Below, in pieces: positions 24,579-47,085 of a DNA stretch of 64,000 nt (position 1 is the stretch's first letter; every line of letters starts with the position of its first letter). The stretch comes from Parasedimentitalea maritima (lineage in GTDB: Bacteria > Pseudomonadota > Alphaproteobacteria > Rhodobacterales > Rhodobacteraceae), in assembly GCF_005771405.1 (NCBI RefSeq), contig NZ_VAUA01000006.1:83251-147250 (forward strand). The letters are read 5' to 3'. The notes under the pieces were generated by a model. The model did no database searches. It saw only the letters and a list, made by a program, of their open reading frames with translations, and was not told the DNA's origin. The position numbers and the translations under genes were made by a program.

Positions 24579-24590
24579 GGAAACCATCAA

Positions 24591-27499: not shown

Positions 27500-27508
27500 C
27501 TGACAAAC

Positions 27509-27532
27509 GCGCTGCCCTAATCAGGGCAGCGC
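27509..27532 (+). promoter_or_regulatory. Hairpin between coxL and coxD
   Basis: GCGCTGCCCT-AATC-AGGGCAGCGC, a perfect 10-bp GC-rich stem with a 4-base loop, starting 10 bases after the coxL stop. No T-run follows, so it is more likely to attenuate read-through or protect the upstream coxMSL message from decay than to stop transcription fully. Confidence 0.6.
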
Positions 27533-27554
27533 ATCCCAAAATCTGGAATTTGAA

Positions 27555-30547: not shown

Positions 30548-30560
30548 GAAAGACAAGACC

Positions 30561-31010
30561 ATGGAACTGAACGACGAAATTATCATCGATGCCCCAATGA
30601 CCCGCGTTTACGAGGCGTTGAACGATCCAGACATCCTTCAGCAGTGCATTCCCGGCTGTGAAGAATTGATCAAACATTCCGATACTGAGTTGGAAGCCAA
30701 GGTTGTCTTGAAAATCGGCCCCGTAAAGGCGCGTTTTGGCGGCAACGTAGTGTTGGACACTTCGGGTGCACCCAGCGCGTTTTCATTGACGGGGCAGGGC
30801 AATGGCGGGGCGGCAGGTCATGCCAAGGGCGGCGCAGATGTGACCCTGGAAGAGGTCGCTGGAAAGACAGTGCTGAGATACACCGCCAAAGCAGAGATTG
30901 GTGGCAAACTGGCGCAACTTGGTGGACGGTTGATCCAGAGCACGGCTAAAAAGCTGGCAGCAAAGTTCTTTAAGAAGTTTGCAGAAGTCGTGGCCCCAGT
31001 TGAGGCATAA
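30561..31010 (+). CDS. coxG: CoxG, SRPBCC-family membrane-anchoring protein
   Basis: Carbon monoxide dehydrogenase subunit G family, 149 aa (SRPBCC fold). MELNDEIIIDAPMTRVYEALNDPDILQQCIPGCEEL at the start is typical. Its family recruits CO dehydrogenase to the membrane. The C-terminus (LIQSTAKKLAAKFFKKFAEV) is basic and amphipathic, fitting membrane contact. The frame is open from 30519 but the ATG at 30561 fits the family. Last gene of the cox operon. Confidence 0.9.
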   Translation: MELNDEIIIDAPMTRVYEALNDPDILQQCIPGCEELIKHSDTELEAKVVLKIGPVKARFGGNVVLDTSGAPSAFSLTGQGNGGAAGHAKGGADVTLEEVAGKTVLRYTAKAEIGGKLAQLGGRLIQSTAKKLAAKFFKKFAEVVAPVEA

Positions 31011-31378: not shown

Positions 31379-32785
31379 TTAGTTTATAGATACATTCGGG
31401 TTTATATGACCGTCAGGATCGAAGGCCCGCCGAATGCGTTTCAGAAGGCTCAGCTCAATTGGGTCGGTCCCGTTTTCAAAGCGGTGTTTCTTCAGAGATC
31501 CGATACCATGCTCTGCGCTGATCGTTCCATTGAGCTTCAGCGCTTCCTGATCAACAATTTTGGACAGCTGCAGGCGATACTGCATGAAGGTTTCTGCGTC
31601 CATGTCCTTTGGTCGGGCAATGTTGAAATGGATGTTGCCATCTCCAAGATGCCCGAATGGTACAGGCCTCACATTTGGTAGGTATCTGGTCAGAGCATCT
31701 GCGGTTGCGCGAAGGTATTCTGGTAGCGCGGCGACCGGCACTGCTGTGTCGCATTTGATGGCGGATTTATCATCAACAAAACCTGCTGCGAAAGCCTCGC
31801 GTAACATCCAAAAACCCTGACGCTGGCCTACCGACTGTGCAATCGCCGCATCTTGTACCAGCCCATTTTCATTAGCTTCAAAAAGCGCAGCCATCAACGC
31901 ATCTTCCAGGTCAAAGGCTTTTGCAGAGGTTTCAGCTTCGATTAGAAGATACCAATCGCTTTGCTGTTCAAGTGGCTGTCGGTTCTTTCCCACGGCTTCG
32001 CCAAATTCCAGCGCGGCTTTCGACATCAATTCAAATGCCGAGATGACTTGGCCCAGCTGGTCCTCCAAAAAGCGCAGTAAATGCAGGGCTGCCTCGACGG
32101 AAGCTATGGCCACAAAAGCAGTGGTGCGGTTTTATGGGTAGGCGCCCAGTTTCAGTACTGCACCAGTGATCAATCCTAACGTGCCTTCTGAACCGATAAA
32201 CAGATGCTTCAGATCATATCCGGCGGTATTTTTTCGCAGCTTTCGCAAGCCGTTCCAGATAGTCCCATCGGGCAAGACAACCTCAAGTCCCAGCACCTGA
32301 TCGCGGGCGGTGCCGTAGCGAAGCGCGTTGTTACCGCCTGCGTTTGTGGCAAGGTTACCGCCGATCTGGCTGGAATCCTGACCTCCATGGTGCAGCGGGA
32401 AGTACCGCCCGGCTTGTTTTGCAGAAGACTGTACCTTGCTCAACACAACACCGGCGTCCACAGTCATGCTGTTGTTGTCCAGATCCACCTCTCGGATTGC
32501 GTTCATCCGCTCCAGCGCAATGATCGCTGAAGGGGAGGGGGCAGTGGGCACTGCTGCGCCCGTTAAGCCAGTCAATCCACCTTGCGGGACAATGCTCAGG
32601 TTATTGGCCCGGCACCACTTTACTGCTGCGGCCACTTGGTCTGTGTTGGCAGGGCGCAAAATTGCCATGGGCTGCGTGACGGTTACGCCTTGCAGATCGT
32701 CCAGATATTTTTCCATATCGCGTGGGGCGGTCAGAACTGCCTTATGGCCCAATGTTGCAATGATCTGGTCCAGCGCCTCCTGCAT
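31379..32785 (-). pseudogene. FAD-linked D-2-hydroxyacid dehydrogenase (GlcD-type) with one in-frame stop
   Basis: Read leftward from ATG 32785, codons 1-217 give the FAD-binding half (IVPQGGLTGLTGAAVP; DSSQIGGNLATNAGGNNALRYG; IGSEGTLGLITGAVLKLG) and then a TAA at 32132-32134. The same frame continues with NRTTAFVAIASVEAAL and the FAD_oxidase_C half (PFGHLGDGNIHFNI; ISAEHGIGSLKK) to 31379. Together 467 residues, the normal length of GlcD/lactate-dehydrogenase-like flavoenzymes, with nothing missing. So it is one gene broken by a single nonsense codon, unless the base is a sequencing error. Lies one base after the aminotransferase gene and is the last of the leftward operon. It would oxidise a 2-hydroxyacid to a 2-oxoacid. 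Confidence 0.85.
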
Positions 32786-32786
32786 G

Positions 32787-33890
32787 TCAGTGTTCCAGGA
32801 TTTTGCTGATTGCCAGGATCAATCTGTCGGTATTGGATTGTGACCCTATGGTGATCCGCAGAGCTCCGTTGCCGCCGGGCCAGGGCATTGCCTGGACCAG
32901 AATGTTCTCCGCCGCCAGTGATGAGCTGATAATGTCCGCGCTGACAGGTGGGACAACTGTCAAGAAATTGGCAAAGCTTGGCAGGGCTGAAAACCCGAGA
33001 AGTGTTAGCGCAATCTCCAGTCGCTTGCGTTCGGAAATGGTATGGGTCAGGCAGGTCTGTAAATAGCGGTCATCGTTCATCGCAGCAGTCGCGGCTGCTA
33101 TCGCCACCCGATTGACGTTGAAGTTGGGCCGTAGCTGCCACAGGGCTTTATGGATGTCCTCATCGCTTGCCAGTGCATATCCGACGCGCATTCCAGCCAT
33201 GCAATAGGCCTTGGAAAATGAGCGTGTCACCACCCATGGGCCTGCTCGGTTCGCGAGGATCTTGAGTACATCCGGACCGCCCTCAGCCTGGGCAAACTCA
33301 AAATAGGCTTCGTCGACAACCAACAGCACCGTGTCCGGCACTTGGCGCGCTGCCAGTTCCAGATCTGACGCCGTGAGTATCGCTCCGGTGGGGTTATTGG
33401 GGGTACATAGGTAGAACAACCGTGTGTCCGGCGTCACCGCTGCCAGCATTGTTACAACGTCATTGCTGCCATCGGGCAGCACCGGAACGCTGACCACTTT
33501 GCCCCCCGCGATTTGCACCCCCTTGCCGCAAGTTGGAAAAGTTGGCGTGGGCATCACCGCCTCGTCGCCCTCGTTTATCGAGAGCATCGCGAGCGCCACC
33601 AGGATCTCGCCGCTGCCATTTCCAAAGCTAATCCGGCTGGCTGGAATCCCGGTGCGCTTGCTGATCACCGCTGTCAACGTGCTGCAACCATGATCAGGGT
33701 AGCGGTTGGTTTGCGTCAATGCCTGCGCCGCCGCGGCCAATGCGTTGGGGGAGGGAGGCAGGTGCGACTCGTTCAAGTTTAACCGCAGAACATCTGCGGC
33801 CACGCCTGTGGCCTCTTCGGTGATCGAGGGTGGCGGGGGATAGGTGATCCCCCGGATTTTCTCAATCGGCAGGGCCACAGGCTGTTTCAT
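32787..33890 (-). CDS. Histidinol-phosphate-aminotransferase-like PLP enzyme
   Basis: Fold-type I aminotransferase of 367 aa resembling HisC: LRLNLNESHLPPSPNAL at the N-terminus (in HisC usually NENP), YLCTPNNPTGAILT, VVDEAYFEFA, the PLP lysine in TRSFSKAYCMAGMRVGYA, and GALRITIGSQSNTD at the end. In this operon, next to HutH and a 2-hydroxyacid dehydrogenase, it may interconvert histidine and imidazolepyruvate rather than work in histidine synthesis; this is inference. Abuts the genes on both sides (0 and 1 base). Confidence 0.82.
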   Translation of the reverse strand: MKQPVALPIEKIRGITYPPPPSITEEATGVAADVLRLNLNESHLPPSPNALAAAAQALTQTNRYPDHGCSTLTAVISKRTGIPASRISFGNGSGEILVALAMLSINEGDEAVMPTPTFPTCGKGVQIAGGKVVSVPVLPDGSNDVVTMLAAVTPDTRLFYLCTPNNPTGAILTASDLELAARQVPDTVLLVVDEAYFEFAQAEGGPDVLKILANRAGPWVVTRSFSKAYCMAGMRVGYALASDEDIHKALWQLRPNFNVNRVAIAAATAAMNDDRYLQTCLTHTISERKRLEIALTLLGFSALPSFANFLTVVPPVSADIISSSLAAENILVQAMPWPGGNGALRITIGSQSNTDRLILAISKILEH

Positions 33891-34499
33891 TCAGGTATGG
33901 CTCCAGTCGTCCGGGTTTTGAGACTTGTTGGGCGATAGACCAAGAATATCTCCCTTGGTCGAGCAGCCCAACCCCAGCACCGTACGGTTGGCATAGCCGA
34001 AATAGGCCGAGACCTGATTGATTTCGAGGATTTCTCCGTCGGTAAACCCAGCATCGCGTAGCTGAACGACTATTGTCTCCGTCATGCCCGCTGCATCGCG
34101 GGTCAGTTGACGGGCGTATTCCATCGCCAGTTTCTGCTGTGCGTCCAACGGTGCAGCCGCAATGTTACGCGTTTCGATGGCCAGACGGATAGCATCTGAT
34201 TTCGTGTCGTCTTTCAGCAGCCGCTTTAAACCCGAGAAATGATGATCAACACAGTAGTTGCATTCATTCAGCGAGCTGACCCAAACACCCAGAGTTTCCA
34301 GGAACCATTTGGGGATGGTGTTGCCGGTGTGGTGCAAGACGTATTTGTAAATCGCCATATGCCCCTCCATCGTATGGGGGCGCAACGAATGCATCATCAT
34401 GATGTTGTCGACATTGTTGTCCGGGCCTTTGACTCGGTCGTACAACATCTTCAGTTTGCCATCGGCATCTTCGTATTCAACGGTATCAATCCAGGGCAT
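33891..34499 (-). CDS. Carboxymuconolactone decarboxylase/AhpD-like peroxidase-related protein
   Basis: CMD-fold protein of 202 aa. The redox pair CNYCVDHH near residue 79 is the AhpD-type CxxC...H site, and the C-terminus (EILEINQVSAYFGYANRTVLGLG) is typical of the 'peroxidase-related' subgroup. Likely detoxifies a peroxide or quinone made by the flavoenzymes of this operon. Its stop directly abuts the aminotransferase start. Confidence 0.82.
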   Translation of the reverse strand: MPWIDTVEYEDADGKLKMLYDRVKGPDNNVDNIMMMHSLRPHTMEGHMAIYKYVLHHTGNTIPKWFLETLGVWVSSLNECNYCVDHHFSGLKRLLKDDTKSDAIRLAIETRNIAAAPLDAQQKLAMEYARQLTRDAAGMTETIVVQLRDAGFTDGEILEINQVSAYFGYANRTVLGLGCSTKGDILGLSPNKSQNPDDWSHT

Positions 34500-34512
34500 T
34501 TTTTGTTCTTTC

Positions 34513-36048
34513 TTAGTTCTTGAGGCTTGCGCCGATAGGTTCAGAAACCATCGCGCTCAGAGTGTTTGTTTTCAACATTTCAATGGCTTTTTCCAGATCA
34601 GGGGCCATAAATCTGTCCCGCTTGAAAGACGGAACCTGTTCTCGTAACGCGGTGACTGCGGCTTGCAGCGGTGGGGAGGTTTCCAGCGGCAGGTGAAACT
34701 CCAACCCTTGAGCTGCTGCCATCCATTCTACTGCCAGCACCGCCCGGCAATTGTCGGCCATATCACCCAGCCTTCGCGCCGCATAGGTCGCCATCGACAC
34801 ATGGTCTTCTTGATTGGCCGAGGTCGGGATACTGTCAACTGATGATGGATGCGCCAGTGCCTTGTTCTCTGAAACCAGCGCCGCCGAGGTAACCTGCACC
34901 ATCATGAAGCCTGAATTTAGTCCGCTCTCAGGTGCCAGAAAGGCAGGCAGGCCGGAAACCGAAGCATCCACCATCATCGCTTGACGTCGTTCTGAAATTG
35001 ATCCGATTTCGGCAATCGCCAGCGCAATATTGTCGGCTGCCATTGCGATGGGTTCAGCATGGAAGTTCCCACCCGACAGAATTTCTCCGGTCTCAGGGAA
35101 CACCAAGGGGTTATCGCTGATTGAATTGGCCTCGTTTTTGATCACACCGGCAGCGAACTCCAACTGATCCAGGCAAGCGCCCATCACCTGCGGCTGGCAG
35201 CGCAGGCAGTAAGGGTCCTGTACCTTTTCGCAATCGATGTGGGAGTGCCGCACTTGGCTGCTATCCAGCAATCTCCGGTAGGCTCCGGCAACCTGCTGCT
35301 GACCATTTTGCCGACGGACCGCATGAATGCGGGCATCAAACGGAGTGGTGGAGCCTTTGCAGGCGTCAACGCTGAGAGCACCAGTTACCAAACCACTACG
35401 TAGCAGGTCTTCGGCGGCAAACAGTCCCTTCATAGCCAGTGCGGTTGAGACTTGGGTGCCATTGATCAGCGCCACGCCTTCCTTTGGGCCCAATTCGATC
35501 GGTTGGCGACCAATCACCGCCAGTGCGTGGGACGCAGGCATCTTTTCACCACGCACCCTCATTTCACCTTCGCCCATCATTGCGGCGACCATATGCGATA
35601 ACGGTGCCAAATCGCCCGAAGCGCCGACAGATCCCTTGGAAGGGATACAGGGCAGCACATCGTTCTCGGCCATGTCCAGCAGCATCTCGATGACTTCCCA
35701 GCGGATACCGGAATGGCCCTGGCTCAAGGCATTGGCCTTAAGGTATATCACTAAGCGCACGACATCGTCGTCCAGTAGGGCGCCAGTGCCGACACAATGT
35801 GACATGATCAGTCGGTGCTGCAACTCGACAATTTGGTCTCTCTCGATCTTGACGTGAGCCAGTTTTCCAAAACCAGTGTTGACGCCATAGACCGGACGTC
35901 CCTTGTTCAAGATCTCCATCACAGCGGCCTGGCAGGCCTTAACGGTTTCGATGGTTTCAGGGCCAAACCCGATCGATATTTTGTTCTCGAAGATACGGCG
36001 CCAGTCCCCTAGAGAGATTTCTCCAGGCTGAAATTGTGTCTTGGTCAT
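34513..36048 (-). CDS. hutH: Histidine ammonia-lyase
   Basis: MIO-dependent lyase of 511 aa, releasing ammonia from histidine to give urocanate. The MIO-forming Ala-Ser-Gly is at 143-145 in SVGASGDLAPLSHM; VYGVNTGFG (catalytic Tyr near 54), QDPYCLRCQPQVMG and SISDNPLVFPETGE are present. The selectivity position reads Ser83-His84 (MSH), as in HutH, and not the His-Leu of tyrosine lyases. Unusually, hutI and hutG are not nearby; instead it follows ABC transporter genes and precedes a CMD protein and aminotransferase on one leftward operon. A modified histidine as substrate cannot be excluded. Confidence 0.9.
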   Translation of the reverse strand: MTKTQFQPGEISLGDWRRIFENKISIGFGPETIETVKACQAAVMEILNKGRPVYGVNTGFGKLAHVKIERDQIVELQHRLIMSHCVGTGALLDDDVVRLVIYLKANALSQGHSGIRWEVIEMLLDMAENDVLPCIPSKGSVGASGDLAPLSHMVAAMMGEGEMRVRGEKMPASHALAVIGRQPIELGPKEGVALINGTQVSTALAMKGLFAAEDLLRSGLVTGALSVDACKGSTTPFDARIHAVRRQNGQQQVAGAYRRLLDSSQVRHSHIDCEKVQDPYCLRCQPQVMGACLDQLEFAAGVIKNEANSISDNPLVFPETGEILSGGNFHAEPIAMAADNIALAIAEIGSISERRQAMMVDASVSGLPAFLAPESGLNSGFMMVQVTSAALVSENKALAHPSSVDSIPTSANQEDHVSMATYAARRLGDMADNCRAVLAVEWMAAAQGLEFHLPLETSPPLQAAVTALREQVPSFKRDRFMAPDLEKAIEMLKTNTLSAMVSEPIGASLKN

Positions 36049-36071
36049 TTTCTATTTTCCATTTGCTTCCG

Positions 36072-36866
36072 TTAGCCCAGGAGAAGAGCATCATCAGTCA
36101 GCTCTTCCCCTTGCTCGCGTTTGAACAATTCCAGCAGGTCAGCGACTTCCATGTTGTCGCGTTCGGCACCGCCTGCATCAAAGACGATCTTGCCACGGTG
36201 GAACATAATGGTCCGTTCTCCGGTGTGCAGTGCTTGGGCCATAGAGTGCGTCACCATCACAGCCGTAAGTTTCAGATCATCCACAATTTTCTTGGTCAGT
36301 TCCAAAACGAAATCAGCCGTCTTTGGGTCTAGTGCTGCAGTATGTTCATCAAGCAGTAGCACCTTGGTGTCACCGGTTGCCGCCATCAGCAACGATACTG
36401 CCTGGCGCTGACCGCCTGAAAGCAGCCCAACCTTGTCGTTCAGACGATCCTCAAGCCCCAGTCCCAAAATTTTAAGTTGCTCGGCTGCTTCGTCGCGCAT
36501 CGAGGCGCCAACAGCATAACGAAACCCACGCGGTCTTGTTCGGCCATGGGCAAGGGCAAAGTTTTCCAGGATGGACAGGTCTTCACAGGTGCCCATTTTT
36601 GGATCCTGAAAAACGCGCGACAGCATTTTTGAACGCTTGTAGACGGGCCAGTTGGTCACGTCCTGACCGTCGATTTTAACGTGTCCAACCTCGAGTTTTG
36701 TGTGCCCGGCAATCACATTCAAGCTGGTTGATTTACCCGCTCCGTTTGAGCCGATGATGGTCAAGAACTGTCCTTTTGGTACGTTGAGATCAACGCCACG
36801 CAAGGCGCGTGTTTCCAATGGAGTGTCTTTGTTGAAAGTGACGTGGACTTCGGAAAGTTCGATCAT
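36072..36866 (-). CDS. ABC transporter ATP-binding protein (TrpXYZ-type)
   Basis: ATPase of 264 aa (COG1101-like): Walker A GSNGAGKSTSLNVIAG, signature LSGGQRQAVSLLMA, Walker B VLLLDEHTAALDPKTA (note DEH where most have DEP), switch VTHSMAQAL. Belongs with the COG4120 permease and COG2984 binding protein upstream, a system usually labelled tryptophan/tyrosine uptake. Overlaps the permease gene by 4 bases; 23 bases before hutH. Confidence 0.9.
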   Translation of the reverse strand: MIELSEVHVTFNKDTPLETRALRGVDLNVPKGQFLTIIGSNGAGKSTSLNVIAGHTKLEVGHVKIDGQDVTNWPVYKRSKMLSRVFQDPKMGTCEDLSILENFALAHGRTRPRGFRYAVGASMRDEAAEQLKILGLGLEDRLNDKVGLLSGGQRQAVSLLMAATGDTKVLLLDEHTAALDPKTADFVLELTKKIVDDLKLTAVMVTHSMAQALHTGERTIMFHRGKIVFDAGGAERDNMEVADLLELFKREQGEELTDDALLLG

Positions 36867-37765
36867 TTCCGGCCTCCTTTCCGAAGGATGGTTCTGAATG
36901 ATCCGGTTTGTTGGGCGATCAGTGCAATGGCTACCAACAGTGCAGTCACCAATTGGACATCCGAAGCCTGAAAACCCAGGAAATCAGCGTTTAAGGCGAG
37001 CGCCACTGCCAGGCGGTAGAGGACTGCACCGAACAGGCAAGCGAGGGTCGCCAGAAAGATTGTTCGTGAAGGCAGGATCGACATCCCGACGATAACCGAG
37101 GCCAGGCCAACGATAATGACGCCGATGCCCATGTAAGCATCCGCCGCGCCAAATATCTGGGCAAACAGTGCGCCTGCGATGGCTGTCAGGGCATTAGCTG
37201 TTCCAACCCCGTAAAGCTTCATGTTGCCAACGTTTACGCCATTGGCCTCTGCCATTGCAGGGTTGGCACCAGCTGCACGCATGGAAATGCCCCAGCCAGT
37301 GGCAAGGAAAGCATCCAGTAGCAGTTTGATAACCAGCACCATGATGCCAAGAAAGATGGGGTTGATGATATAGCCGGGCAATCCGAGCCCTTCGAACGAG
37401 GTGAACACAGTGTCCACCATGAGCAAAGGTTTGTTTGGTCCGCTCATGATCCGCAGATTGATGGAGTAAAGTGAGATCGACAACAGAATGCCGGCCAAAA
37501 TGTGCAGGATCTTGAAACGTACATTTAGCATCGCGGTGGCGAAACCGGCAGCAAAGCCAGCAACCCCGCCGGTTAGTGTTGCCAACCAGGGGTTCCAACC
37601 TGCCGCAACGATCAAAGTTGCTGCCACGGCTGCGCCTAAGGGGAAGCTGCCTTCGACTGTCAGATCGGGGAAGTCGAGAATTTGAAAAGTGAGATAAGCG
37701 CCGAGTGCGACGATACCAAAGATGAACCCGGTTTCGAGTGTTCCCAGAATTTCATAGAGGGACAT
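36863..37765 (-). CDS. ABC transporter permease (TrpXYZ-type)
   Basis: Membrane protein of 300 aa with 8 or so hydrophobic helices, related to branched-chain amino-acid permeases (FQILDFPDLTVEGSFPLGAAVAATLIVA; GWGISMRAAGANPAMAEANGVNVG; VGLASVIVGMSILPSRTI). The frame continues to 37846, but those extra 27 residues are Arg-rich and do not fit; MSLYEILG at 37765 does. Last base pairs overlap the ATPase start. Confidence 0.88.
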   Translation of the reverse strand: MSLYEILGTLETGFIFGIVALGAYLTFQILDFPDLTVEGSFPLGAAVAATLIVAAGWNPWLATLTGGVAGFAAGFATAMLNVRFKILHILAGILLSISLYSINLRIMSGPNKPLLMVDTVFTSFEGLGLPGYIINPIFLGIMVLVIKLLLDAFLATGWGISMRAAGANPAMAEANGVNVGNMKLYGVGTANALTAIAGALFAQIFGAADAYMGIGVIIVGLASVIVGMSILPSRTIFLATLACLFGAVLYRLAVALALNADFLGFQASDVQLVTALLVAIALIAQQTGSFRTILRKGGRK

Positions 37766-37855
37766 ATGTATTGCCTTTTGAGTGAACCTCCTGCGGGATC
37801 TGAGAACTCTCAGGCGCAGAAAAAATGTGCGCCCGAAGACGCACAAGTTGGGGAA

Positions 37856-38833
37856 TTATTCGATGATTTGGGTCGCGCGTGACATTACGGATTCAGGGAT
37901 TTTCACCGCCATGCGTTCAGCAGCCCCCAAGTTCACGACAACTTTGAAGTGGTCGACCACATTGTAAGCAATCACGGCATCGATCTCGCTGACTGATTTG
38001 CCTTCCAGAATGTCGGCAGCCATGTCGCCGGCCACACGTCCAACCGCAACGTAATCAAGCCCGACTGACGCCAATGCACCACGCTCTACCCCACCGGTTT
38101 CACCTGTAAAGATCGGCATATCAACGTCTTGGCCAATTTTCACGATAGCTTCGAGTGCGGCCACGATGGTTGTGTCGTTCGGCACATAGATCGCATCCAC
38201 TTCGCCAATTAGCTTTTTGGTTGCCAGAATGACTTCATTGGTTGTTGGGGCAGGGGATTCGACCACGGTGATGCCGCGCTTTTCGCCCTCTTCCTTGATC
38301 CAACCGAGCGTTGCCAAGGCGTTGTCCAGGCCGGGGTTGTAGATGAAACCGATCTTGCTAAGGCCTGGAACGATTTCTTCAAACATGTCCAGCTGAGCGG
38401 CAATCGGTGCAGCGTCTGACACACCTGTAACATTTGCACCGGGCTTTTCGTATTGAGTAATCAGGCTGGCTTTGATTGGGTCTGTCACAGTGGCAAAGAC
38501 AATTGGAATATCTTTGGTTGCTGCTGCCATCGCCTGCGAGGTTGGCGTGGTGATCGGAATGATCACATCCGGTGCATCGCCGACGAATTTCTTAGCAATC
38601 TGCTGTTGGGTTGGCATGTTCCCGTTGGCATTTTGGTAGTCGACGGTCAGGTTTTCACCTTCGACATAGCCCCGGTCTGCAAGTGCGGCGAGAATACCGT
38701 CACGGGTCTCGGTCAGTGCCGGTACTTCGACAATAGTCGCAATAGCGATTGATTTGCTGTCTTGCGCTACGGCTGTAGTCGCAGCGGCGGCAAACGCGAA
38801 TGACACCAGCGCGGTTTTGAATGAATTGTTCAT
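37856..38833 (-). CDS. ABC transporter substrate-binding protein (TrpX-type)
   Basis: Periplasmic protein of 325 aa of the ABC_sub_bind family (COG2984). Signal peptide MNNSFKTALVSFAFAAAATT with cleavage after AVA near residue 23. Typical motifs: ILAALADRGYVEGENLTVDYQNANG, IVFATVTDP, GVSDAAPIAAQLDMFEEIVPG. GGGAGG-type ribosome-binding site (GGGAGG) just before the ATG. First gene of the leftward seven-gene operon that includes hutH, so its ligand is presumably the substrate of that pathway, perhaps histidine or an imidazole compound. Confidence 0.9.
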   Translation of the reverse strand: MNNSFKTALVSFAFAAAATTAVAQDSKSIAIATIVEVPALTETRDGILAALADRGYVEGENLTVDYQNANGNMPTQQQIAKKFVGDAPDVIIPITTPTSQAMAAATKDIPIVFATVTDPIKASLITQYEKPGANVTGVSDAAPIAAQLDMFEEIVPGLSKIGFIYNPGLDNALATLGWIKEEGEKRGITVVESPAPTTNEVILATKKLIGEVDAIYVPNDTTIVAALEAIVKIGQDVDMPIFTGETGGVERGALASVGLDYVAVGRVAGDMAADILEGKSVSEIDAVIAYNVVDHFKVVVNLGAAERMAVKIPESVMSRATQIIE

Positions 38834-38851
38834 CGGATCCTCCCTTAGGAT

Positions 38852-38870
38852 GCCGGCATGAGGTGCCGGC
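38852..38870 (-). promoter_or_regulatory. Hairpin in the leader of the transporter/hutH operon
   Basis: GCCGGCA-5 nt-TGCCGGC, a perfect 7-bp GC-rich dyad 18 bases before the binding-protein start, in the 149-base gap shared with the IclR gene. Could be an IclR operator or an mRNA leader stem. I cannot decide between them. Confidence 0.4.
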
Positions 38871-38982
38871 TAAGCTCTTTTTTCCAGGATTTGATGTCCC
38901 AGGGCGAAGAGCCGGTTGACGTGCCCCTGTTTTTTGGTGTTTCATATTGTGAGCAGCAAGCACATATAACGGGTCAATCGAA

Positions 38983-39771
38983 ATGGAAGTCAAGATGGAA
39001 TCACAGGCCGGCGTTGCGTTGGTTGCTAAGGCGTTTCAGATTCTCGATCTGTTTCAAGCGAGCAGCCCAACATGGTCTCAAGCTGAAATTATCCGAAAGA
39101 CGGACCTCAACAGATCAACAGTGAACCGCCTTGTCCGCTTCCTCGCTGGCCGTGGGTATCTGGTTCAGATTGCTTATTCAGGGCGGTATTCACTGGGGCT
39201 CTCGGCTATTGAGTTGGGCAATCGGGCAAACGCCGGTTTCGATTTGCGTGCAAACTGCCAAGCCGCGATGGAAGAGCTATCAGCAAAAGTGAATGAGACG
39301 GTTGTTCTCAGTGCTTTTGACCCGTTTAAGATGGTCGCAGTCTGCATTGATCAGGTCGAAAGTCGCAAAGAAGGGCTGCGCGTTTTTGAAAAGGTTGGCT
39401 CTAGTTTTCCCCTGCATGCCGGCGCTGCGCCCAAGGCGATTCTGGCGTTTTTGAATGAGGATACGAGAGAAGAGTTTCTACAAAACCAGCTGAAGAGATT
39501 TACCGCCAATACGCTGACATCGAAGAAAGAGATGCGTCAGGACATCGAGGAAACGCGTCTACGCGGCTACGCGCTGTCCAGAGAGGAGACCTATGAGGGC
39601 ACCGTTGGACTCGCTGCGCCGATTTTTGGACCTTTAGGGACCGCCATTGGCAGTCTTGCGGTGGCGCTGCCAGTACATCGCGCAACCCCCGAGGCATTGA
39701 CGACGATCGCGCAGCAAGTGCTTTCCGAAGCACGGAGTGTGTCTGAAACGCTCACTGGGGCAGTGGAATGA
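38983..39771 (+). CDS. IclR-family transcriptional regulator
   Basis: Regulator of 262 aa. N-terminal winged HTH (WSQAEIIRKTDLNRSTVNRLVRFL) and C-terminal IclR effector domain (FEKVGSSFPLHAGAAPKAILAFL; TYEGTVGLAAPIFGP). It stands between the leftward transporter/hutH operon and the rightward operon containing hutU and is translationally coupled to the latter (ATGA). It is therefore the likely regulator of both. Start may instead be ATG 38995, which has GGAAG upstream. Confidence 0.88.
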   Translation: MEVKMESQAGVALVAKAFQILDLFQASSPTWSQAEIIRKTDLNRSTVNRLVRFLAGRGYLVQIAYSGRYSLGLSAIELGNRANAGFDLRANCQAAMEELSAKVNETVVLSAFDPFKMVAVCIDQVESRKEGLRVFEKVGSSFPLHAGAAPKAILAFLNEDTREEFLQNQLKRFTANTLTSKKEMRQDIEETRLRGYALSREETYEGTVGLAAPIFGPLGTAIGSLAVALPVHRATPEALTTIAQQVLSEARSVSETLTGAVE

Positions 39772-40766: not shown

Positions 40767-40767
40767 G

Positions 40768-41967
40768 ATGGTTATGAACAACTCTGGACTGCTTAAGGGA
40801 ATACGCGTGCTGGACCTGACCCGGGTTATGTCGGGGCCGTTTTGCACCTCGATGCTGGCCGATCTAGGGGCCGAAATCATCAAGATCGAAATGCCAGGCT
40901 TTGGCGACGAGGCGCGCCATTTCGGCCCATACCAGGAAGATGAAAGTACCTATTTCATGATGCTGAACCGGCGCAAAAAGAGCGTAACGGTGAACATAAA
41001 GGAACAGCAGGGGCGCGATATTGTCAAAGCGCTGGTTCCGCAGTGCGACGTCATAGTTGAGAATTTTCGACCGGGTGTGATGCAACGGTTAGGATTGGGC
41101 GAGGATGCAGTGCGCGCGCTGAACCCAACCATCATTTACGCCAGCATCTCAGGCTTTGGTCAGGACAGTCCGCTCAAAAACTGGCCCGCATTTGACCTTG
41201 TTATTCAGGCCATGGGAGGCCTGATGAGCCTGACCGGTCCCAAGGGTGGTCCAGCAACGGCCGTGGGCGAGTCGATGGCCGATGTTTGTACCGGAATGTT
41301 TGGTGCCTTTGGTATCGTTTCAGCGCTGTTTGACCGCGAGCGCAGCGGTAAGGGTCATTCGGTGGATGTCGCCATGCTGGATTCGATCATGGCGATGCAG
41401 TTAACCGGGTTATCGCGCCAACTCTACGCAGGTGACACACCCAAACCCGTCGGCAACCGGCATCCAGTTACTTACCCTGTCGACAGCTTCGCCACTCAAG
41501 ACGGTGACATTGTTATGGTTTGCTTTTCACAAGGGGCGTTCCGCGCGCTTTGCGGGGTGATGGGGCAGCCTGATCTTGCTGATGACGCGCGCTTTAAAAG
41601 CAACGACAACCGCAATACGAACGAGGATGCTCTGCGCGCAATCATAGCAAATTGGGCGGCAACCCAAACGCAGGATGCATTGGTTGAGACACTTCAGAAC
41701 GCTGGAATTCCCGCTGGTCCGGTTTGGACACTGCAGGATCTTACGCAGTCGGATCACGTGGCGGAGCGCGGTCTTGTGACAGAAGGCGCACACCAGAAAT
41801 TTGGCAAGGTCCCCCTTGTCCCGCAGCCGGTGAAGTTCAACGGCGCGGCGCATGTGGGTGAGGCCTTTGTGCCCACTCTTGGCGAACACACAGATGAGGT
41901 TTTGGGTGAGTTACTCGACCTTGATCAGACTGAAATAGGCGCGTTGCGCGCCAACAAGGTTATTTGA
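40768..41967 (+). CDS. CaiB/BaiF (family III) CoA-transferase
   Basis: Family III CoA-transferase of 399 aa. [19 protein letters not shown], then [25 protein letters not shown], and the catalytic Asp in [16 protein letters not shown] near residue 170. Transfers CoA from a donor acyl-CoA to a carboxylic acid. ATG 40768 has GGAG 8 bases upstream, one base after the stop of the preceding gene; GTG 40756 is less likely. That a CoA-transferase precedes hutU directly suggests CoA-bound intermediates, which are no part of the usual Hut pathway. Confidence 0.87.
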
Positions 41968-41972
41968 CGGAC

Positions 41973-43655
41973 ATGGATATGAACACTGACACCAAAAACA
42001 CCCGCGTCATTCGCGCGCCAACCGGCAACGAGCTGAACGCAAAAAGCTGGCAGACCGAAGCACCACTGCGGCTGCTAATGAACAACCTTGATCCGGACGT
42101 AGCAGAGCGCCCCGAAGATCTGGTGGTTTATGGCGGCATTGGCCGCGCTGCGCGGAACTGGGAATGTTTTGACGAAATCGTTAGTCAGCTCAAAGAACTG
42201 GAAACCGATGAGACCTTGCTGGTGCAATCTGGCAAACCCGTTGGCGTGCTCAAAACGCATTCCAAAGCCCCCAGAGTTTTGATTGCTAACGGAAATTTGG
42301 TGCCTCGTTGGGCGACTTGGGAAAAGTTCAATGAATTGGATAAGCTGGGCCTGACCATGTATGGCCAGATGACCGCAGGCTCTTGGCTGTACATCGGCAG
42401 TCAGGGCATTGTGCAGGGCACGTTTGAAACCTTTTCGGAAATTGGTCGCCGCCATTTTGATGGTGATCCTGCTGGACGTCTGGTGGTGACCGGCGGTCTT
42501 GGTGGTATGGGCGGGGCACAGCCTCTGGCGGCGACTATGGCCGGGTTCAATGCCATCGTAGTTGAGTGCCAGCCAAGCAAAATCGATTTCCGTATCCGCT
42601 CGGGCTATCTCGACGCAAAGGCCATTTCTCTCGACGAAGCTCTCACGATGATCGCTGACGCAAATGCGAAAGGGATGCCGCTGTCTGTTGGTCTTTTGGG
42701 GAATGTCATTGATGTTCTAGAAGAGATGCAAATCCAGGGCATTGTTCCGGATGTCTTGACCGATCAAACCTCGGCGCATGACCCGGTTTATGGCTATCTG
42801 CCACGCAATTGGACCCTAACGCAGTGGCAGACCAATCAGGTTGCTGATCCCACTCTGGTGTCGGCAGAGGCCAAGAAGAGCATGGCCGAGCATGTAAAAT
42901 TGATGCTGGATTTTCAGGGCAAGGGCTCTGTTGTCATGGAGTATGGCAATAACCTGCGCGCCATGGCGGAAGAGGCAGGTGCTGAGAATGCCTTTGGTTT
43001 TCCAGGTTTTGTCGAGGCTTACGTGCGGCCGCTGTTTTGTCAGGGCAAAGGTCCATTCCGCTGGGTGGCGCTGTCTGGTGATCCCGAAGATATCTACAAG
43101 ACCGACGCCAAAGTACGTGAGTTGATGCCGGATGATACGTTCCTGCATCGCTGGCTTGATAAGGCGCGTGAGCACATCAAATTTCAGGGATTGCCTTCAC
43201 GGATTTGCTGGGTTGGTCTTGGGGATCGTGACCGGTTGGGCCGCGCCTTTAACGAAATGGTGCGCACCGGTGAATTAAGTGCGCCTGTTGTGATTGGCCG
43301 CGATCACATGGATAGCGGTTCGGTCGCCAGTCCCAATCGGGAAACCGAAGGCATGAAGGATGGTTCGGACGCGATTTCCGACTGGCCAATCCTGAACGCA
43401 TTATTGAACTCAGCAAACGGAGCCACCTGGGTGTCTTTCCACCATGGCGGTGGCATGGGGATGGGCTATTCCCAGCATTCCGGCATTGCTCTGTTGGCCG
43501 ATGGCAGTGACGAGGCCGATGAGATGATCGCCCGGACCCTGTGGAACGATCCCGCAAGTGGTGTCATCCGCCATGCCGATGCTGGCTATGAAAGTGCAAT
43601 TGAATGTGCGGCCGAACACGGCCTCAACCTACCCATGCAAAATCGCAAGGAGTAA
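41973..43655 (+). CDS. hutU: Urocanate hydratase
   Basis: NAD-dependent urocanase of 560 aa, urocanate to 4-imidazolone-5-propionate. Many invariant blocks: [16 protein letters not shown]-like ([16 protein letters not shown]), [43 protein letters not shown] (NAD+), [34 protein letters not shown]. The frame begins with TTG at 41964, inside the CaiB stop; ATG 41973 is preferred. Full length for the family. Lack of hutI and hutG in the window is notable. Confidence 0.93.
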
Positions 43656-43661
43656 GCTGCA

Positions 43662-43952
43662 ATGCCTGTCTTGATTGTCTCACGTGTATCTATCAAAGAT
43701 GCCGAAGCCATGGCGTCTTATATGGAGGCGGCGCCGGAAACGGTGGCCGCCTACGGCGGCAATTATCTAGCGCGCACACCGCAAATTGAAGTTCTGGAAG
43801 GCGTGGCCGATTATGATCGGATGGTGGTGGTTGAGTTTCCCGACCGGACACGTGCGATGGCCTGGTATGAGTCCGAAGAATACCGTGACCTGCGACAGTC
43901 ACGCTGGAATGCGGCAGAGGCGCATATCGTAGTCATACCCACCGAACAGTAA
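43662..43952 (+). CDS. DUF1330-family small protein
   Basis: Dimeric alpha-beta-barrel protein of 96 aa: MPVLIVSRVSIKDAEAMASY at the start and VVVEFPDRTRAMAWYESEEYR, the DUF1330 signature (EFP...A..WY.S.EY). Begins 6 bases after hutU, so co-transcribed. Function of the family is unknown; related folds are monooxygenases and small-molecule isomerases. Confidence 0.85.
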   Translation: MPVLIVSRVSIKDAEAMASYMEAAPETVAAYGGNYLARTPQIEVLEGVADYDRMVVVEFPDRTRAMAWYESEEYRDLRQSRWNAAEAHIVVIPTEQ

Positions 43953-43987
43953 GTCTCCATTTCCGGCAGCGTGCACCCAGTAACGGG

Positions 43988-44323
43988 TTAAAATGCTTTT
44001 GCATCTTCGGGAAAAAACGCGGCCAATTTCCCTGACTTCCCATCGTGGGATTCTGCTTCTGGAGCGGGATCTTTGCGCTGGACCATGACCGGCCAAAGTT
44101 CTGCATATTTTCGGTTGAAGGCGACCCAAGCATCACTGTCTGCTTCGGTATCTGGTCGGATGGCGTCAGCAGGGCATTCCGGCTCACATACCCCGCAGTC
44201 AATGCATTCGTCCGGATGGATGACCAGTGTATTTTCGCCCTCATAGAAGCAATCCACTGGGCAGACCTCGACGCAATCGGTGTATTTGCAAGCAATACAA
44301 TTTTCAGTCACGACATAAGTCAT
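43988..44323 (-). CDS. fdxA: 7Fe ferredoxin (FdxA type)
   Basis: Ferredoxin of 111 aa with [3Fe-4S] and [4Fe-4S] ligands in [18 protein letters not shown] and [16 protein letters not shown]. Length and C-terminal tail are those of FdxA. Converges on the DUF1330 gene and lies downstream of the nitroreductase gene on the same strand, with a 172-base gap. Most likely electron carrier between the ferredoxin-NADP reductase and the nitroreductase-fold enzyme near it. Confidence 0.92.
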
Positions 44324-44351
44324 GCTACTTCCTTATTAAAACAGCGGACAG

Positions 44352-44368
44352 AACCCCGCTGTGGGGTT
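44352..44368 (-). promoter_or_regulatory. Small hairpin between nitroreductase and fdxA genes
   Basis: AACCCC-GCTGT-GGGGTT, 6-bp stem, about 30 bases before the fdxA start and 128 after the nitroreductase stop. Weak as a terminator (no T-run). Confidence 0.3.
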
Positions 44369-44495
44369 GTGATTGGCAAGCCTGGAAAGCCAGCTATTCG
44401 GAGAAGAGCAGTCTTTCGCCCTCTGGTTTTCTAGGACCAGACGAAACAGAACGCGGGCTCAACCTGTGCTCGGGCAAACAACTTGGGAAACACCC

Positions 44496-45359
44496 TTAGT
44501 CTTTGAGACGTCGTTTTGTGGCCCGACCAGTGGTACGCGGAGCAGAGAAGTCAGCGCTGTTTTCTAACTGGCCATTGGGATTAGGCGTGCCTGTTGTAAA
44601 CGCAGTTTCCCAGTCCCCCAGTTTCTCTTGACGGTCGCTCCAAGTTTCCATGGTTTCCTCGTCCCGGTACATCGCAAATGGGCGCAAGGAGCTTTCATAG
44701 AAATCCACTTGTTCATGGGTGCGATATTGCGTGGGTTGGAATCCGTTCCAGTGTAGGGCCTGTTCCAGAGGGCGGCGATAGCGCCTATTTTGGGTCGCGG
44801 CCGGATATCCAATTGGAATGGTGCCATAGGCTTTCATCCAGTCGGGATAGCCTAACAGATCTGACAGTTCCTTATTGGTGATGTCCTCGCCGCCGCCAGA
44901 CAACCAGGCGCTGGTGAGGTTCTCAGCAGCGACACCCAACTGGATATTCTGGATCGCAGCGCCAATTGAGTTTTGATAAATGACTTCGTTGTTTTCGAGG
45001 TATTCTTTTTCCCAACCTTCAGTTGTTGGCTGCGGGAAACAGACTTTCCAGCGTGGATCACCAAGAACGATGACAATTGCCACAGTGTTTGCAAGATAAG
45101 TTTTCTTGACCGCCGGAAACCCTTTGGCGTGGTCGACCAGACGTTGGGCTTGCCGTAAAAACACCTCCATGACCTTGTCACGCAGTATGGGGTCATCAAC
45201 GACGATGAAATCAAAGCACTGCACGTTGGCGCCCGAAGGTGCCCACCGTCCGCAATCAACGATACGCTCTAGCACCTTCCGGTCAACAGACCGACCGGGT
45301 TCGAATTTTCGCACGCTCCGCCGTTTGCGTATGACATCCTGAAAAAGTGGATCGGACAT
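44496..45359 (-). CDS. Nitroreductase-family flavoprotein
   Basis: FMN-dependent nitroreductase fold, 287 aa, longer than the usual 200-220. RKRRSVRKFEPGRSVDRK and CGRWAPSGANVQCFDFIVVDD bind the flavin phosphate; QNSIGAAIQNIQLGVAAE and GYPDWMKAYGTIPIGYPA are the conserved core. A C-terminal extension of about 70 residues (FQPTQYRTHEQVDFYESSLRPF onward) is family-atypical and hydrophilic. ATG 45359 has GAGGAG upstream; the longer frame to 45485 is rejected. Divergent from the fpr gene; substrate unknown. Confidence 0.85.
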   Translation of the reverse strand: MSDPLFQDVIRKRRSVRKFEPGRSVDRKVLERIVDCGRWAPSGANVQCFDFIVVDDPILRDKVMEVFLRQAQRLVDHAKGFPAVKKTYLANTVAIVIVLGDPRWKVCFPQPTTEGWEKEYLENNEVIYQNSIGAAIQNIQLGVAAENLTSAWLSGGGEDITNKELSDLLGYPDWMKAYGTIPIGYPAATQNRRYRRPLEQALHWNGFQPTQYRTHEQVDFYESSLRPFAMYRDEETMETWSDRQEKLGDWETAFTTGTPNPNGQLENSADFSAPRTTGRATKRRLKD

Positions 45360-45488
45360 AGGTTTTCTCCTCGATTTTGAAAATTTTACGCCATCGAAGG
45401 TTTGCGATGCATTCCTCAGTGATGAGGATTGTTGAAATGAGGTCGATGTTTTTGTTTGGGGCTGCGCGAAACAAACAGGACCCATGAG

Positions 45489-46286
45489 ATGAATCAGATC
45501 GCAAGAGAAATCACAGCTCCCAAAGGCTTTGCCGCGTTACGGGTGAGTGACGTCAAACACTATAGTGATCGGCTTTTTGCTTTCAAAACCGAGCGCCCCG
45601 CTGGATTCCGTTTCCGCTCGGGTGAGTTTGCAATGATTGGGCTGCCAGTGGACGGCAAGCCCTTGGTGCGGGCCTATTCCATTGCTTCGCCAAATTGGGA
45701 GGAACATCTGGAGTTTTATTCGATCAAGGTGCCGGACGGGCCGTTGACGTCGCGTCTGCAAAACATAGGCGTCGGAGATCATATTCTAATCCGGCCCAAA
45801 CCTGTGGGAACACTGGTGTTTGACGCGCTTCTACCGGGAAAACGGCTGTTCTTGCTTTCCACCGGTACTGGCGTTGCACCGTTTGCCAGCGTCATACGGG
45901 ATCCAGAAGTATATGAAAAGTTTGATGAAATTTATCTACTGCACACCTGCCGTGAGGTGAGTGAACTGGCCTATGGGCGCGACTTGGTGCAGTCCGTTCT
46001 CACGCACGAATATTTGGGTGAACTTGCCGATGGCAAGCTACTCCACCTACCGACCACTACGCGCGAAAACTCTGATCATATGGGGCGGATTAACACCTGG
46101 ATCGAAGATGGGCGGTTGGCAGAGTTCGCAGGCGGTACTTTGACGCCCCAGACCGATCGAGTAATGATCTGCGGATCCATGGCGATGTTGAAAACACTCA
46201 AGGATTGCTGTGAAGCACTGGGGTTTAAGGAGGGGTCGAACTCTAAGCCTGGGGAGTTTGTGATCGAAAAGGCTTTTGCGGAGTAA
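45489..46286 (+). CDS. fpr: Ferredoxin-NADP reductase (Fpr type)
   Basis: FAD enzyme of 265 aa: FRFRSGEFAMIGL, the FAD motif RAYSIASPNWEEHLEFYSIK, then NADP-binding LLSTGTGVAPFASVIRDPE and the C-terminal GEFVIEKAFAE. Bacterial subclass I FNR. Starts at ATG 45489 (MNQIAREI). Probably reduces the nearby ferredoxin; possibly one electron-supply unit with the divergent nitroreductase. Confidence 0.92.
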   Translation: MNQIAREITAPKGFAALRVSDVKHYSDRLFAFKTERPAGFRFRSGEFAMIGLPVDGKPLVRAYSIASPNWEEHLEFYSIKVPDGPLTSRLQNIGVGDHILIRPKPVGTLVFDALLPGKRLFLLSTGTGVAPFASVIRDPEVYEKFDEIYLLHTCREVSELAYGRDLVQSVLTHEYLGELADGKLLHLPTTTRENSDHMGRINTWIEDGRLAEFAGGTLTPQTDRVMICGSMAMLKTLKDCCEALGFKEGSNSKPGEFVIEKAFAE

Positions 46287-46308
46287 CGTGCTTCGCGAGT
46301 AAGCATTC

Positions 46309-47085
46309 ATGACTTTGGAACACAAGTTCGAGTGGCCAGCGCCTGAAATAGTGATGCCGATGTCGCTAGCGGCAGAGCTTACCCGGAGCATCGGCACCAC
46401 CGCCTTTGTGCAAACGACAATGCGTTTTGCCTATGAAACTGCAGGTGCCGATTTTGTTTCTGTTTTCTGTCTTGGGGATCGGGACAAACCGCTTTTGATG
46501 GGAACGGCCTGCCGGTTGGGGCAAAATCGGGCTGACCGTGCCGCCAAGGGCTATGTTCGCCATGTTGAACAGGACCGAAACGCCCAATTGTTGCAAAGCG
46601 CACGTGGGGTTGGTGATTTTTTGACCGTGCAAGAGGCCGACAATATTCCGCTATTTACCTATCGACGCGACTGTTATGATCTGCCGGGGATAAGTGGTCG
46701 GGTTTCATTGGTGCGGCGCACGCCAGCATATGGACTATCTGTAAGTCTATATTCGAGCTTAGAAACAGGTCCTTTCCCCGAGCACTCATACTCGGATGTA
46801 AAGGCCGTTCTGGGGTATCTGTTAGCTGCCACTGAACGGCACGTCGCATTTTCTATGAAAGGGCCAGTCTGGCAGGGGCAAGATATCCAAACGCGGTTGG
46901 CATTGACTTATCCCGACTTAACGACGCGCGAGCGGGAGGTCGCAGCTATGGCAATTAAAGGCAGAACTGCGGCTGAAACGGCGGATTTACTGAACCTTGC
47001 AGAAACAACGATCATAACACACCGCAAGAATGCATATAGACGCATGAACGTGGCATCCCTACGTCAGTTGGTTGCCACGCTGTGA
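46309..47085 (+). CDS. LuxR-family transcriptional regulator
   Basis: Regulator of 258 aa. The C-terminal HTH is clear (LTTREREVAAMAIKGRTAAETADLLNLAETTIITHRKNAYRRM). The first 180 residues are a sensor-like region of no obvious family (possibly GAF-like). Follows fpr by 22 bases, so probably co-transcribed, and may control the redox genes or the hutU operon. Acyl-homoserine-lactone binding residues of LuxR are not evident. Confidence 0.85.
   Translation: MTLEHKFEWPAPEIVMPMSLAAELTRSIGTTAFVQTTMRFAYETAGADFVSVFCLGDRDKPLLMGTACRLGQNRADRAAKGYVRHVEQDRNAQLLQSARGVGDFLTVQEADNIPLFTYRRDCYDLPGISGRVSLVRRTPAYGLSVSLYSSLETGPFPEHSYSDVKAVLGYLLAATERHVAFSMKGPVWQGQDIQTRLALTYPDLTTREREVAAMAIKGRTAAETADLLNLAETTIITHRKNAYRRMNVASLRQLVATL

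What the first reader, a model, noticed from the sequence alone, without database searches (positions are those of the whole stretch)
31379..47085. HutH and HutU embedded in an unconventional catabolic locus without HutI/HutG
Seen: a leftward operon (TrpX-type binding protein, permease, ATPase, HutH, CMD protein, HisC-like aminotransferase, FAD 2-hydroxyacid dehydrogenase) and a rightward one (IclR, MDR oxidoreductase, CaiB CoA-transferase, HutU, DUF1330) diverge around the IclR promoter. Established: canonical Hut clusters pair hutH/hutU with hutI, hutG or hutF and a HutC or other regulator. Inference: the flavoenzyme and aminotransferase could feed imidazole-lactate or -pyruvate into histidine, and the CoA-transferase plus MDR reductase suggest CoA-bound or reduced imidazole acids. 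The substrate might be a modified histidine rather than free histidine. Thiourocanate hydratases of ergothioneine breakdown are HutU homologues, so such a variant is possible.
Basis: partly seen in the sequence, partly recalled or inferred. Interest (0 to 1): 0.75.

Follow-up and report, generated by a model that had tools for sequence, protein, structure and literature searches.

The report
Side-branch locus feeding histidine breakdown
Besides its normal histidine-degrading genes, this bacterium carries a second set of genes that looks built to feed histidine-like waste molecules (probably imidazole lactate and imidazole propionate, the latter linked to diabetes) into that pathway, which gives testable candidate genes for breaking them down.

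Summary
The two divergent operons are real. Left: importer, HutH2, CMD, HisC-like aminotransferase, D-2-hydroxyacid dehydrogenase-type flavoenzyme (cut here by an in-frame TAA, intact in a sister genome). Right: IclR, MDR, CaiB, HutU2, DUF1330. HutI and HutG are not missing: a complete hutC-F-I-H-G-U cluster lies on another contig, so HutH2 (51%) and HutU2 (67%) are paralogues with ordinary motifs. HutU2 is not a thiourocanate hydratase by model score. IclR-MDR-CaiB-HutU2 recurs in two other genera beside a TRAP importer; HutU2 forms its own clade (100/100). CaiB relatives sit with an acyl-CoA dehydrogenase inside hut clusters at 8 loci, and aminotransferase-flavoenzyme pairs recur beside HutH or HutC in several lineages. 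Best reading: an auxiliary locus turning imidazole lactate (left) and imidazole propionate via CoA esters (right) into histidine and urocanate for the main pathway. The auxiliary role is well supported; substrates are inferred. Against it: an MDR is normally a reductase, the window's CaiB groups with lyase/beta-oxidation CaiBs rather than the hut ones, and such flavoenzymes pair with aminotransferases outside hut loci too. The paper searches found no gene-level account of imidazole-propionate breakdown.

The parts
37856..38833 (-). ABC importer substrate-binding protein, PF04392, TrpX-like (262 bits, below the TrpX cut-off of 390)
   Evidence: nearest solved chains 3lkv and 6hni
36863..37846 (-). 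ABC importer permease (BPD_transp_2); the TTG-started ORF may begin too early (inference)
36072..36866 (-). ABC importer ATPase
34513..36048 (-). HutH2, histidine ammonia-lyase paralogue; MIO Ala-Ser-Gly and histidine-type active-site motifs kept
   Evidence: 51% to the main-cluster HutH
33891..34499 (-). CMD/AhpD-like peroxidase-related protein; no hut gene seen beside its three plasmid relatives read
32787..33890 (-). HisC-like aminotransferase (below the curated HisC cut-off)
   Evidence: 35% to the AT of the G813 hut locus
31379..32785 (-). GlcD/D-2-hydroxyacid dehydrogenase-type flavoprotein gene, interrupted by one in-frame TAA at 32132-32134; intact in the sister genome
   Evidence: (1 TAA)
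38940..38954 (+). Possible IclR operator TTTCATATTGTGAGC, similar to sites in the same promoter of L238 and L239 (perfect palindrome only in L238)
   Evidence: the pattern was built from these sites, so the chance control is partly circular
38983..39771 (+). IclR-family regulator
   Evidence: 48-50% in L238 and L239
39768..40766 (+). MDR oxidoreductase, PIG3/quinone-reductase-like, weaker match to MDR acryloyl-CoA reductases; below all curated cut-offs shown
   Evidence: 52-54% in L238 and L239
40756..41967 (+). Family III (CaiB) CoA-transferase with an Asp motif GESMADV
   Evidence: 66-72% in L238 and L239
41964..43655 (+). HutU2, urocanase paralogue of its own clade
43662..43952 (+). DUF1330 protein; no match in L238 or L239

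Best explanation
An auxiliary histidine-derivative locus that feeds the genome's separate, complete hut pathway. Left operon: an ABC importer takes up an aromatic/imidazole amino acid or its 2-hydroxy acid; a GlcD-type flavoenzyme oxidises D-imidazole-lactate to imidazole-pyruvate, the HisC-like aminotransferase makes histidine, and HutH2 makes urocanate. Right operon, under IclR: a family III CoA-transferase activates imidazole propionate, probably taking CoA from urocanoyl-CoA; an oxidoreductase (MDR here, acyl-CoA dehydrogenase in relatives) interconverts imidazolepropionyl-CoA and urocanoyl-CoA; released urocanate goes to HutU2, and HutI/F/G from the main cluster finish to glutamate. Shown: gene content, tight gene spacing, paralogy, presence of full hut elsewhere, conserved neighbourhoods. 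Inferred: substrates, direction, the CoA donor, regulation by IclR, and what the MDR does. In this strain the flavoenzyme step is probably broken.
For: Complete hut cluster on contig C1; G304, G079 and G031, the other three genomes found with the right operon, each have a hutI (for the operons; 92), and G079 and G031 have hutC-F-I-H-G-U clusters. IclR-MDR-CaiB-HutU2 is conserved in 2 other genera, divergent from TRAP importers; HutU2 clade 100/100. CaiB: 7 of 10 matches in 198 family genomes, this one included, lie in a stretch with a urocanase-family gene. CaiB plus acyl-CoA dehydrogenase lie with hutI, hutH and hutU at 8 loci (L240, L242, L243, L248, L256, L258, L265, L290), and with a HutC-type regulator and an importer like that of the hut operons in Sinorhizobium and Mesorhizobium. 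In f201, 8 of 9 FAD orthologues of 63% or more among 201 genomes lie with HutH, importer and a HisC-like AT; the ninth is in a hut locus without AT. G434 holds FAD, AT, HutH, CaiB, dehydrogenase, HutU, HutG and HutI in about 21 kb.
Against: No substrate was tested. An NAD(P)-linked MDR is normally a reductase, so oxidising imidazolepropionyl-CoA with it is thermodynamically unfavourable (general knowledge), and the four MDR-type genomes have no close homologue of the CaiB-linked dehydrogenase (best by E-value 34-36%, none listed above 39%). In the CaiB tree the window's group joins the CaiBs of rhizobial MIO-lyase/beta-oxidation clusters (100/99, midpoint root), not those of the hut clusters, and the hut-cluster label needs 4 changes. 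The left operon as a whole was seen only in this genus; the right operon occurs without it in G079 and G031. The window's AT and FAD are only about 31-39% identical to the hut-linked ones. In f201, 12 of 21 lower-identity FAD loci (L167-L187) also show a distant AT hit (24-26%) with no HutH within the short flanks, so FAD-AT pairing is not hut-specific. CaiB-dehydrogenase pairs also occur with no hut gene in the stretch read (L241, L244, L260, L261, L291, L292). CMD and DUF1330 are unexplained.
Confidence: 0.42

Rival explanations
1. An N-methylated histidine (from anserine, balenine or actin turnover) is the substrate; the AT and flavoenzyme act on methylimidazole oxo- and hydroxy-acids and HutH2/HutU2 tolerate the methyl group.
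For: Related AT-FAD loci carry a Rieske oxygenase, mostly with a reductase (Gemmobacter, Mesorhizobium, Aureimonas, G434; the G434 one has a VanA-type C-terminal domain), a 2OG-Fe(II) oxygenase (f201 loci), or formaldehyde-handling enzymes (Roseateles), as expected for demethylation.
Against: No Rieske or 2OG oxygenase was found among the proteins of this locus scanned. HutH2 keeps the ordinary motifs.
Confidence: 0.2
2. A redundant second hut branch for histidine and urocanate under IclR control; CaiB, MDR, AT and FAD belong to unrelated acid metabolism and are neighbours by chance.
For: HutH2 and HutU2 are ordinary by motif and curated score. The left operon was seen only in the genus. FAD-AT pairs occur away from hut genes, as do CaiB-dehydrogenase pairs.
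Against: Overlapping genes, conservation of IclR-MDR-CaiB-HutU2 across genera, and repeated CaiB/urocanase and AT/FAD/HutH linkage are hard to get by chance.
Confidence: 0.2
3. The CaiB-MDR pair acts on the acrylate: urocanate is made into its CoA ester and reduced to imidazolepropionyl-CoA, as an electron sink or overflow, rather than the reverse.
For: MDR enzymes are usually NAD(P)H-dependent reductases; this one matches MDR acryloyl-CoA reductase models weakly. The four MDR-type genomes lack the paired dehydrogenase. The window's CaiB groups with those of lyase/beta-oxidation clusters, where the acid to be activated would be the lyase's acrylate product.
Against: It sits with a dedicated urocanase and importers, and relatives use an acyl-CoA dehydrogenase inside oxidative hut clusters.
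Confidence: 0.12
4. Ergothioneine/thiourocanate catabolism.
For: Distant homology; a protein over the thiourocanate hydratase cut-off in G114 does lie about 3 kb from a CaiB relative.
Against: HutU2 scores 666 on the thiourocanate hydratase model (cut-off 930) and 692 on the S-methyl model (cut-off 880), much like the main HutU (687, 683). HutH2 scores 571 bits against a solved histidine lyase and 208.5 against the solved ergothionase.
Confidence: 0.03

Closest known systems
Canonical Hut pathway (hutC-F-I-H-G-U)
   Same: HutH and HutU homologues with the ordinary motifs; product would be imidazolonepropionate
   Different: No HutI/F/G here; IclR instead of HutC; extra CoA-transferase, MDR, aminotransferase and flavoenzyme; the canonical cluster is present separately
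Bacterial breakdown of imidazolyl-lactate and imidazolylpropionate described biochemically in Pseudomonas testosteroni in 1973 (recalled from memory; paper not held)
   Same: Same proposed entry of side substrates into histidine and urocanate
   Different: As recalled, that work named no genes; no link to this gene set was tested
CaiB plus acyl-CoA dehydrogenase inside hut clusters (Paracoccus aminophilus pAMI6 and 7 other loci seen here)
   Same: A CaiB relative (46% identical to that of pAMI6) next to hut genes and an oxidoreductase
   Different: Acyl-CoA dehydrogenase instead of MDR, HutC-type regulator, hutI and hutH in the same cluster; the CaiBs fall in a different part of the tree
MIO lyase-CaiB-beta-oxidation clusters of rhizobial plasmids (L250, L263)
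   Same: Nearest CaiB group in the tree; lyase and importer beside CaiB
   Different: Hydroxyacyl-CoA dehydrogenase and enoyl-CoA hydratase instead of MDR and HutU; lyase motifs differ from HutH
Thiourocanate hydratase / ergothioneine degradation
   Same: HutU superfamily
   Different: HutU2 falls below both curated thiourocanate models

Membership tests
Histidine ammonia-lyase (HutH) | Curated hutH equivalog score and MIO Ala-Ser-Gly with histidine-binding residues | tested here: met
   678.5 vs 539.15 bits; motifs match the main HutH and 1gkm (residue roles and numbers recalled)
Urocanate hydratase (HutU) | Curated hutU equivalog score | tested here: met
   905.5 vs 375 bits; 67% to the main HutU
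Urocanate hydratase (HutU) | Hydrates urocanate | not testable with these tools
   needs an enzyme assay
Thiourocanate hydratase | Curated equivalog score of at least 930 bits | tested here: not met
   666.4 bits; positive case L246 scores 976.7
Canonical Hut operon | hutI and hutG/hutF with hutH and hutU in one cluster | tested here: not met
   not at this locus; present on contig C1
Family III CoA-transferase | PF02515 over the whole protein and the catalytic Asp motif | tested here: met
   422 bits; GESMADV at residues 171-177; that this Asp is the catalytic one is recalled
Histidinol-phosphate aminotransferase HisC | Curated hisC equivalog score | tested here: not met
   249.4 vs 276.55 bits: HisC-like only
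Glycolate oxidase GlcD | Curated glcD equivalog score over the whole protein | tested here: not met
   168.7 and 92.5 for the two halves vs 567.9; the intact sister protein is nearest 3pm9, then D-2-hydroxyglutarate dehydrogenase
MDR acryloyl-CoA reductase | Curated equivalog score | tested here: not met
   127.1 vs 500 bits; also below the PIG3 subfamily cut-off, 238.4 vs 296.8

The most novel reading that the evidence does not exclude
CaiB-type CoA-transferases, paired with either an acyl-CoA dehydrogenase or an MDR oxidoreductase, form a CoA-dependent entry route for imidazole propionate into the Hut pathway: gene-level candidates for aerobic breakdown of this diabetes-linked metabolite, with two unrelated enzymes filling the same C2-C3 step and a dedicated urocanase clade.
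Probability: 0.33. Interest if true: 0.78.

Novelty: new variant of a known kind. Interest (0 to 1): 0.6.

Why it matters
Imidazole propionate is made from histidine by gut bacteria and is raised in diabetes (start of the abstract of PMC7676231; passages of PMC13320830). A search for its degradation or its CoA esters gave 0 papers, and wider searches listed none that looked like a gene-level account (listings and abstract starts only). If right, this locus and its relatives name genes for its breakdown and for imidazole-lactate use, testable by simple growth and enzyme assays in cultivable bacteria.

Tried and rejected
Thiourocanate/ergothioneine: rejected by model scores with a positive case. 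Lost HutI/HutG: rejected, a full cluster exists. CMD as a pathway marker: relatives on the Aminobacter and Deinococcus plasmids sit in unrelated surroundings; the Tritonibacter stretch (L249) has no annotation and tblastn found CMD and a weak AT hit (30%) but no hut gene. I read 3 of the 15 records. HutH2 as a marker: its relatives outside the genus reach at most 62%; of 22 wider stretches read around such relatives (L135-L157 without the sister L146), 17 hold another hut gene and none holds CaiB, CMD or the binding protein, so HutH2 does not track the locus; CaiB and HutU2 do. Whole left operon elsewhere: among loci L016-L120, those with AT or CMD beside HutH2 were only this genome and its sister; many of those loci are short. 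FAD in the window's own family: 187 of 198 genomes have homologues, at most 44% outside this genome; the two read (L226, L227) show no hut gene. IclR operator in the main hut locus: one match at 2 mismatches where 1.48 are expected, so no sign of shared control. Literature: (thiourocanate hydratase) 0 papers; one unrelated paper; the 1973 paper is not held. Rows dropped: tblastn tables show the best hit per gene or place and drop hits under 30% of the query (under 10%; no coverage cut); trees use one protein per locus, and one of 43 loci (L219, HutU cut off) fell out of the HutU tree, whose bootstrap had not settled.
Full report
WHAT IS THERE. The window is G000:C20:83251-147250 of a 4.85-Mb genome in 23 contigs. 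The left operon runs substrate-binding protein, permease, ATPase, HutH2, CMD, HisC-like aminotransferase (AT), GlcD-type flavoprotein (FAD); the right runs IclR, MDR, CaiB, HutU2, DUF1330. Gaps run from -11 to 23 bp. The flavoprotein gene is broken by one in-frame TAA (one search reports '1 TAA'). The sister genome (Zongyanglinia huanghaiensis, L016, the same DNA as G304 over 18.5 kb) has the whole locus at 91.5-99.2% protein identity, the two FAD halves at 94-95%, with this gene intact.

THE MISSING GENES ARE NOT MISSING. Contig C1 holds HutC, HutF, HutI, HutH, HutG and HutU, all over their curated cut-offs. HutH2 and HutU2 are 51% and 67% identical to the C1 copies. A third, divergent MIO lyase lies on C19. 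HutH2 keeps the motifs of histidine lyase and HutU2 aligns end to end with solved urocanases. On the thiourocanate hydratase model HutU2 scores 666 and the main HutU 687, cut-off 930, while L246:4743-6371 scores 977.

HOW RARE. In 394 family genomes 121 match HutH2 at E<=1e-150, but only this genome and G304 exceed 90% identity; the rest listed are 49-56%. Best others: 62% in 385 class genomes, 60% in 398 phylum genomes, 60% among the 75 loci (an exact-peptide scan that can miss relatives), 60.5% on plasmids (436 records). For HutU2 no plasmid record of 662 reaches 80%; the best listed is 70%.

RIGHT OPERON ELSEWHERE. CaiB was searched in 198 family genomes; 9 have 10 matches at E<=1e-100, this one included. 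Two (G079, G031) carry IclR-MDR-CaiB-HutU2 at 48-50, 52-54, 66-72 and 79-81%, divergent from DctP/DctM TRAP importers, without HutH2, AT or FAD in the stretch. Three (G046, G111, G023) carry CaiB and an acyl-CoA dehydrogenase between hut genes. One G114 copy lies about 3 kb from the thiourocanate hydratase. The other three (second G114 copy, G086, G128) show no hut gene in the stretch read. So 7 of 10 are in a stretch with a urocanase-family gene. The HutU2 group is one clade, 100/100 (42 rows, bootstrap unsettled), and so is its CaiB group, 100/100 (26 rows). In that CaiB tree, however, the window's group joins the CaiBs of the rhizobial lyase/beta-oxidation clusters L250 and L263 (100/99, midpoint root), not the hut-cluster CaiBs; 7 of the 8 hut-cluster CaiBs fall together with 2 from loci without full hut, the eighth (L290) elsewhere, and the hut label needs 4 changes. 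TTYCAYATTKTGRRM lies in the divergent promoter of all three genera; I built the pattern from those sites, so its chance count is partly circular, and only the L238 site is a perfect palindrome.

CaiB PLUS DEHYDROGENASE. Plasmid search with the Paracoccus aminophilus dehydrogenase gave 14 records; I read 9 of 14. Four are hut clusters with hutF, hutI, hutH and hutU (P. aminophilus, P. alcaliphilus, Thioclava, Pseudorhodobacter; the Thioclava HutU reads in two pieces). Two have a HutC-type regulator and an importer like that of the hut operons (Sinorhizobium mexicanum, Mesorhizobium). One is beside Rieske-HisC-FAD (Gemmobacter). Two have no hut gene (Leisingera, P. yeei). In 190 class genomes, 4 match the P. 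aminophilus CaiB at E<=1e-105: this genome, G434 (hut supercluster) and G429 and G471 (no hut gene in 19.5 kb). Over all, 8 loci hold CaiB and dehydrogenase with hutI, hutH and hutU; hutG was seen in 5 of the 8 (not in L242, L243, L265). The dehydrogenase's best curated model is acryloyl-CoA reductase, 345 bits, far below the cut-off of 640. The four MDR-type genomes have no close homologue of it (best by E-value 34-36%, none listed above 39%). So MDR and acyl-CoA dehydrogenase may fill the same step, but direction is open.

AT PLUS FLAVOENZYME. In the family of G813 (f201, 201 genomes) 9 genomes, G813 included, have a FAD orthologue at 63% or more; 8 lie with HutH, an importer and a HisC-like AT (in some, about 1.3 kb separates FAD and HutH), and the ninth (G1255) lies in a hut locus without AT. 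Against this, of 21 lower-identity FAD loci there (L167-L187, 4-kb stretches), 12 show a distant AT hit (24-26%) and none a HutH hit: FAD-AT pairing is not special to hut. A search with the Mesorhizobium FAD gave 23 plasmid records; of 7 read, 5 have AT directly beside FAD (L259, L262, L299, L300, L303), 1 has it about 6 kb away (L302), and 1 has none in the stretch (L301). Hut genes (HutC, or HutC and HutH) are annotated in 2 of the 7 (L262, L299). Five of 7 have a Rieske oxygenase; L302 has two formaldehyde enzymes. G434 holds FAD, AT, Rieske, HutH, CaiB, dehydrogenase, HutU, HutG and HutI in about 21 kb. The window's AT and FAD are only about 31-39% identical to these, so this shows that the combination recurs, not that it is one orthologous locus.

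INTERPRETATION. AT plus D-2-hydroxyacid dehydrogenase beside HutH fits imidazole-lactate to imidazole-pyruvate to histidine to urocanate. CaiB plus a C2-C3 oxidoreductase beside urocanase fits imidazole propionate to its CoA ester to urocanoyl-CoA to urocanate. Both end in the main hut cluster. No substrate was tested. The 1973 Pseudomonas testosteroni work on these two acids is recalled, not read. Paper searches found no gene-level account (listings and abstract starts only; 12 passages of PMC13320830), in a library that lacks most subscription journals.

Noticed in passing
window 23547-31010: Aerobic carbon-monoxide dehydrogenase region beside the locus: CoxL-type large subunit over the curated cut-off (1400 vs 991 bits), with FAD-subunit-like, MadB-type ATPase, VWA, XdhC-like and CoxG-like proteins.
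   Followed up: no
L246:4743-6371 (G114:C145): A protein over the thiourocanate hydratase cut-off lies about 3 kb from a CaiB relative, hinting that CaiB enzymes may also act in thio-imidazole breakdown.
   Followed up: partly
L259, L262, L299, L300, L301, L302: FAD loci, most with HisC beside, that carry a Rieske oxygenase (all but L302) or formaldehyde enzymes (L302); L262, L300, L301 and L302 also have a DUF2817 protein (peptidase-like, recalled): candidate methylhistidine or anserine degradation clusters.
   Followed up: partly
L140 and L218-L224: f201 hut loci carry a 2OG-Fe(II) oxygenase beside HutD and HutH (L140 and L222 also show a BCCT transporter), a possible histidine-betaine or methylhistidine branch.
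   Followed up: partly
L015:6737-8218 (G000:C19): A third, divergent MIO lyase with altered histidine-binding motifs lies next to a DddP-like protein (below the DddP cut-off).
   Followed up: no
L250, L263, L264: MIO lyase-CaiB-beta-oxidation type clusters on rhizobial plasmids (hydroxyacyl-CoA dehydrogenase, enoyl-CoA hydratase) and on Paracoccus pAMI4 (SDR, MaoC dehydratase) suggest a further CoA route from an aryl acrylate.
   Followed up: partly
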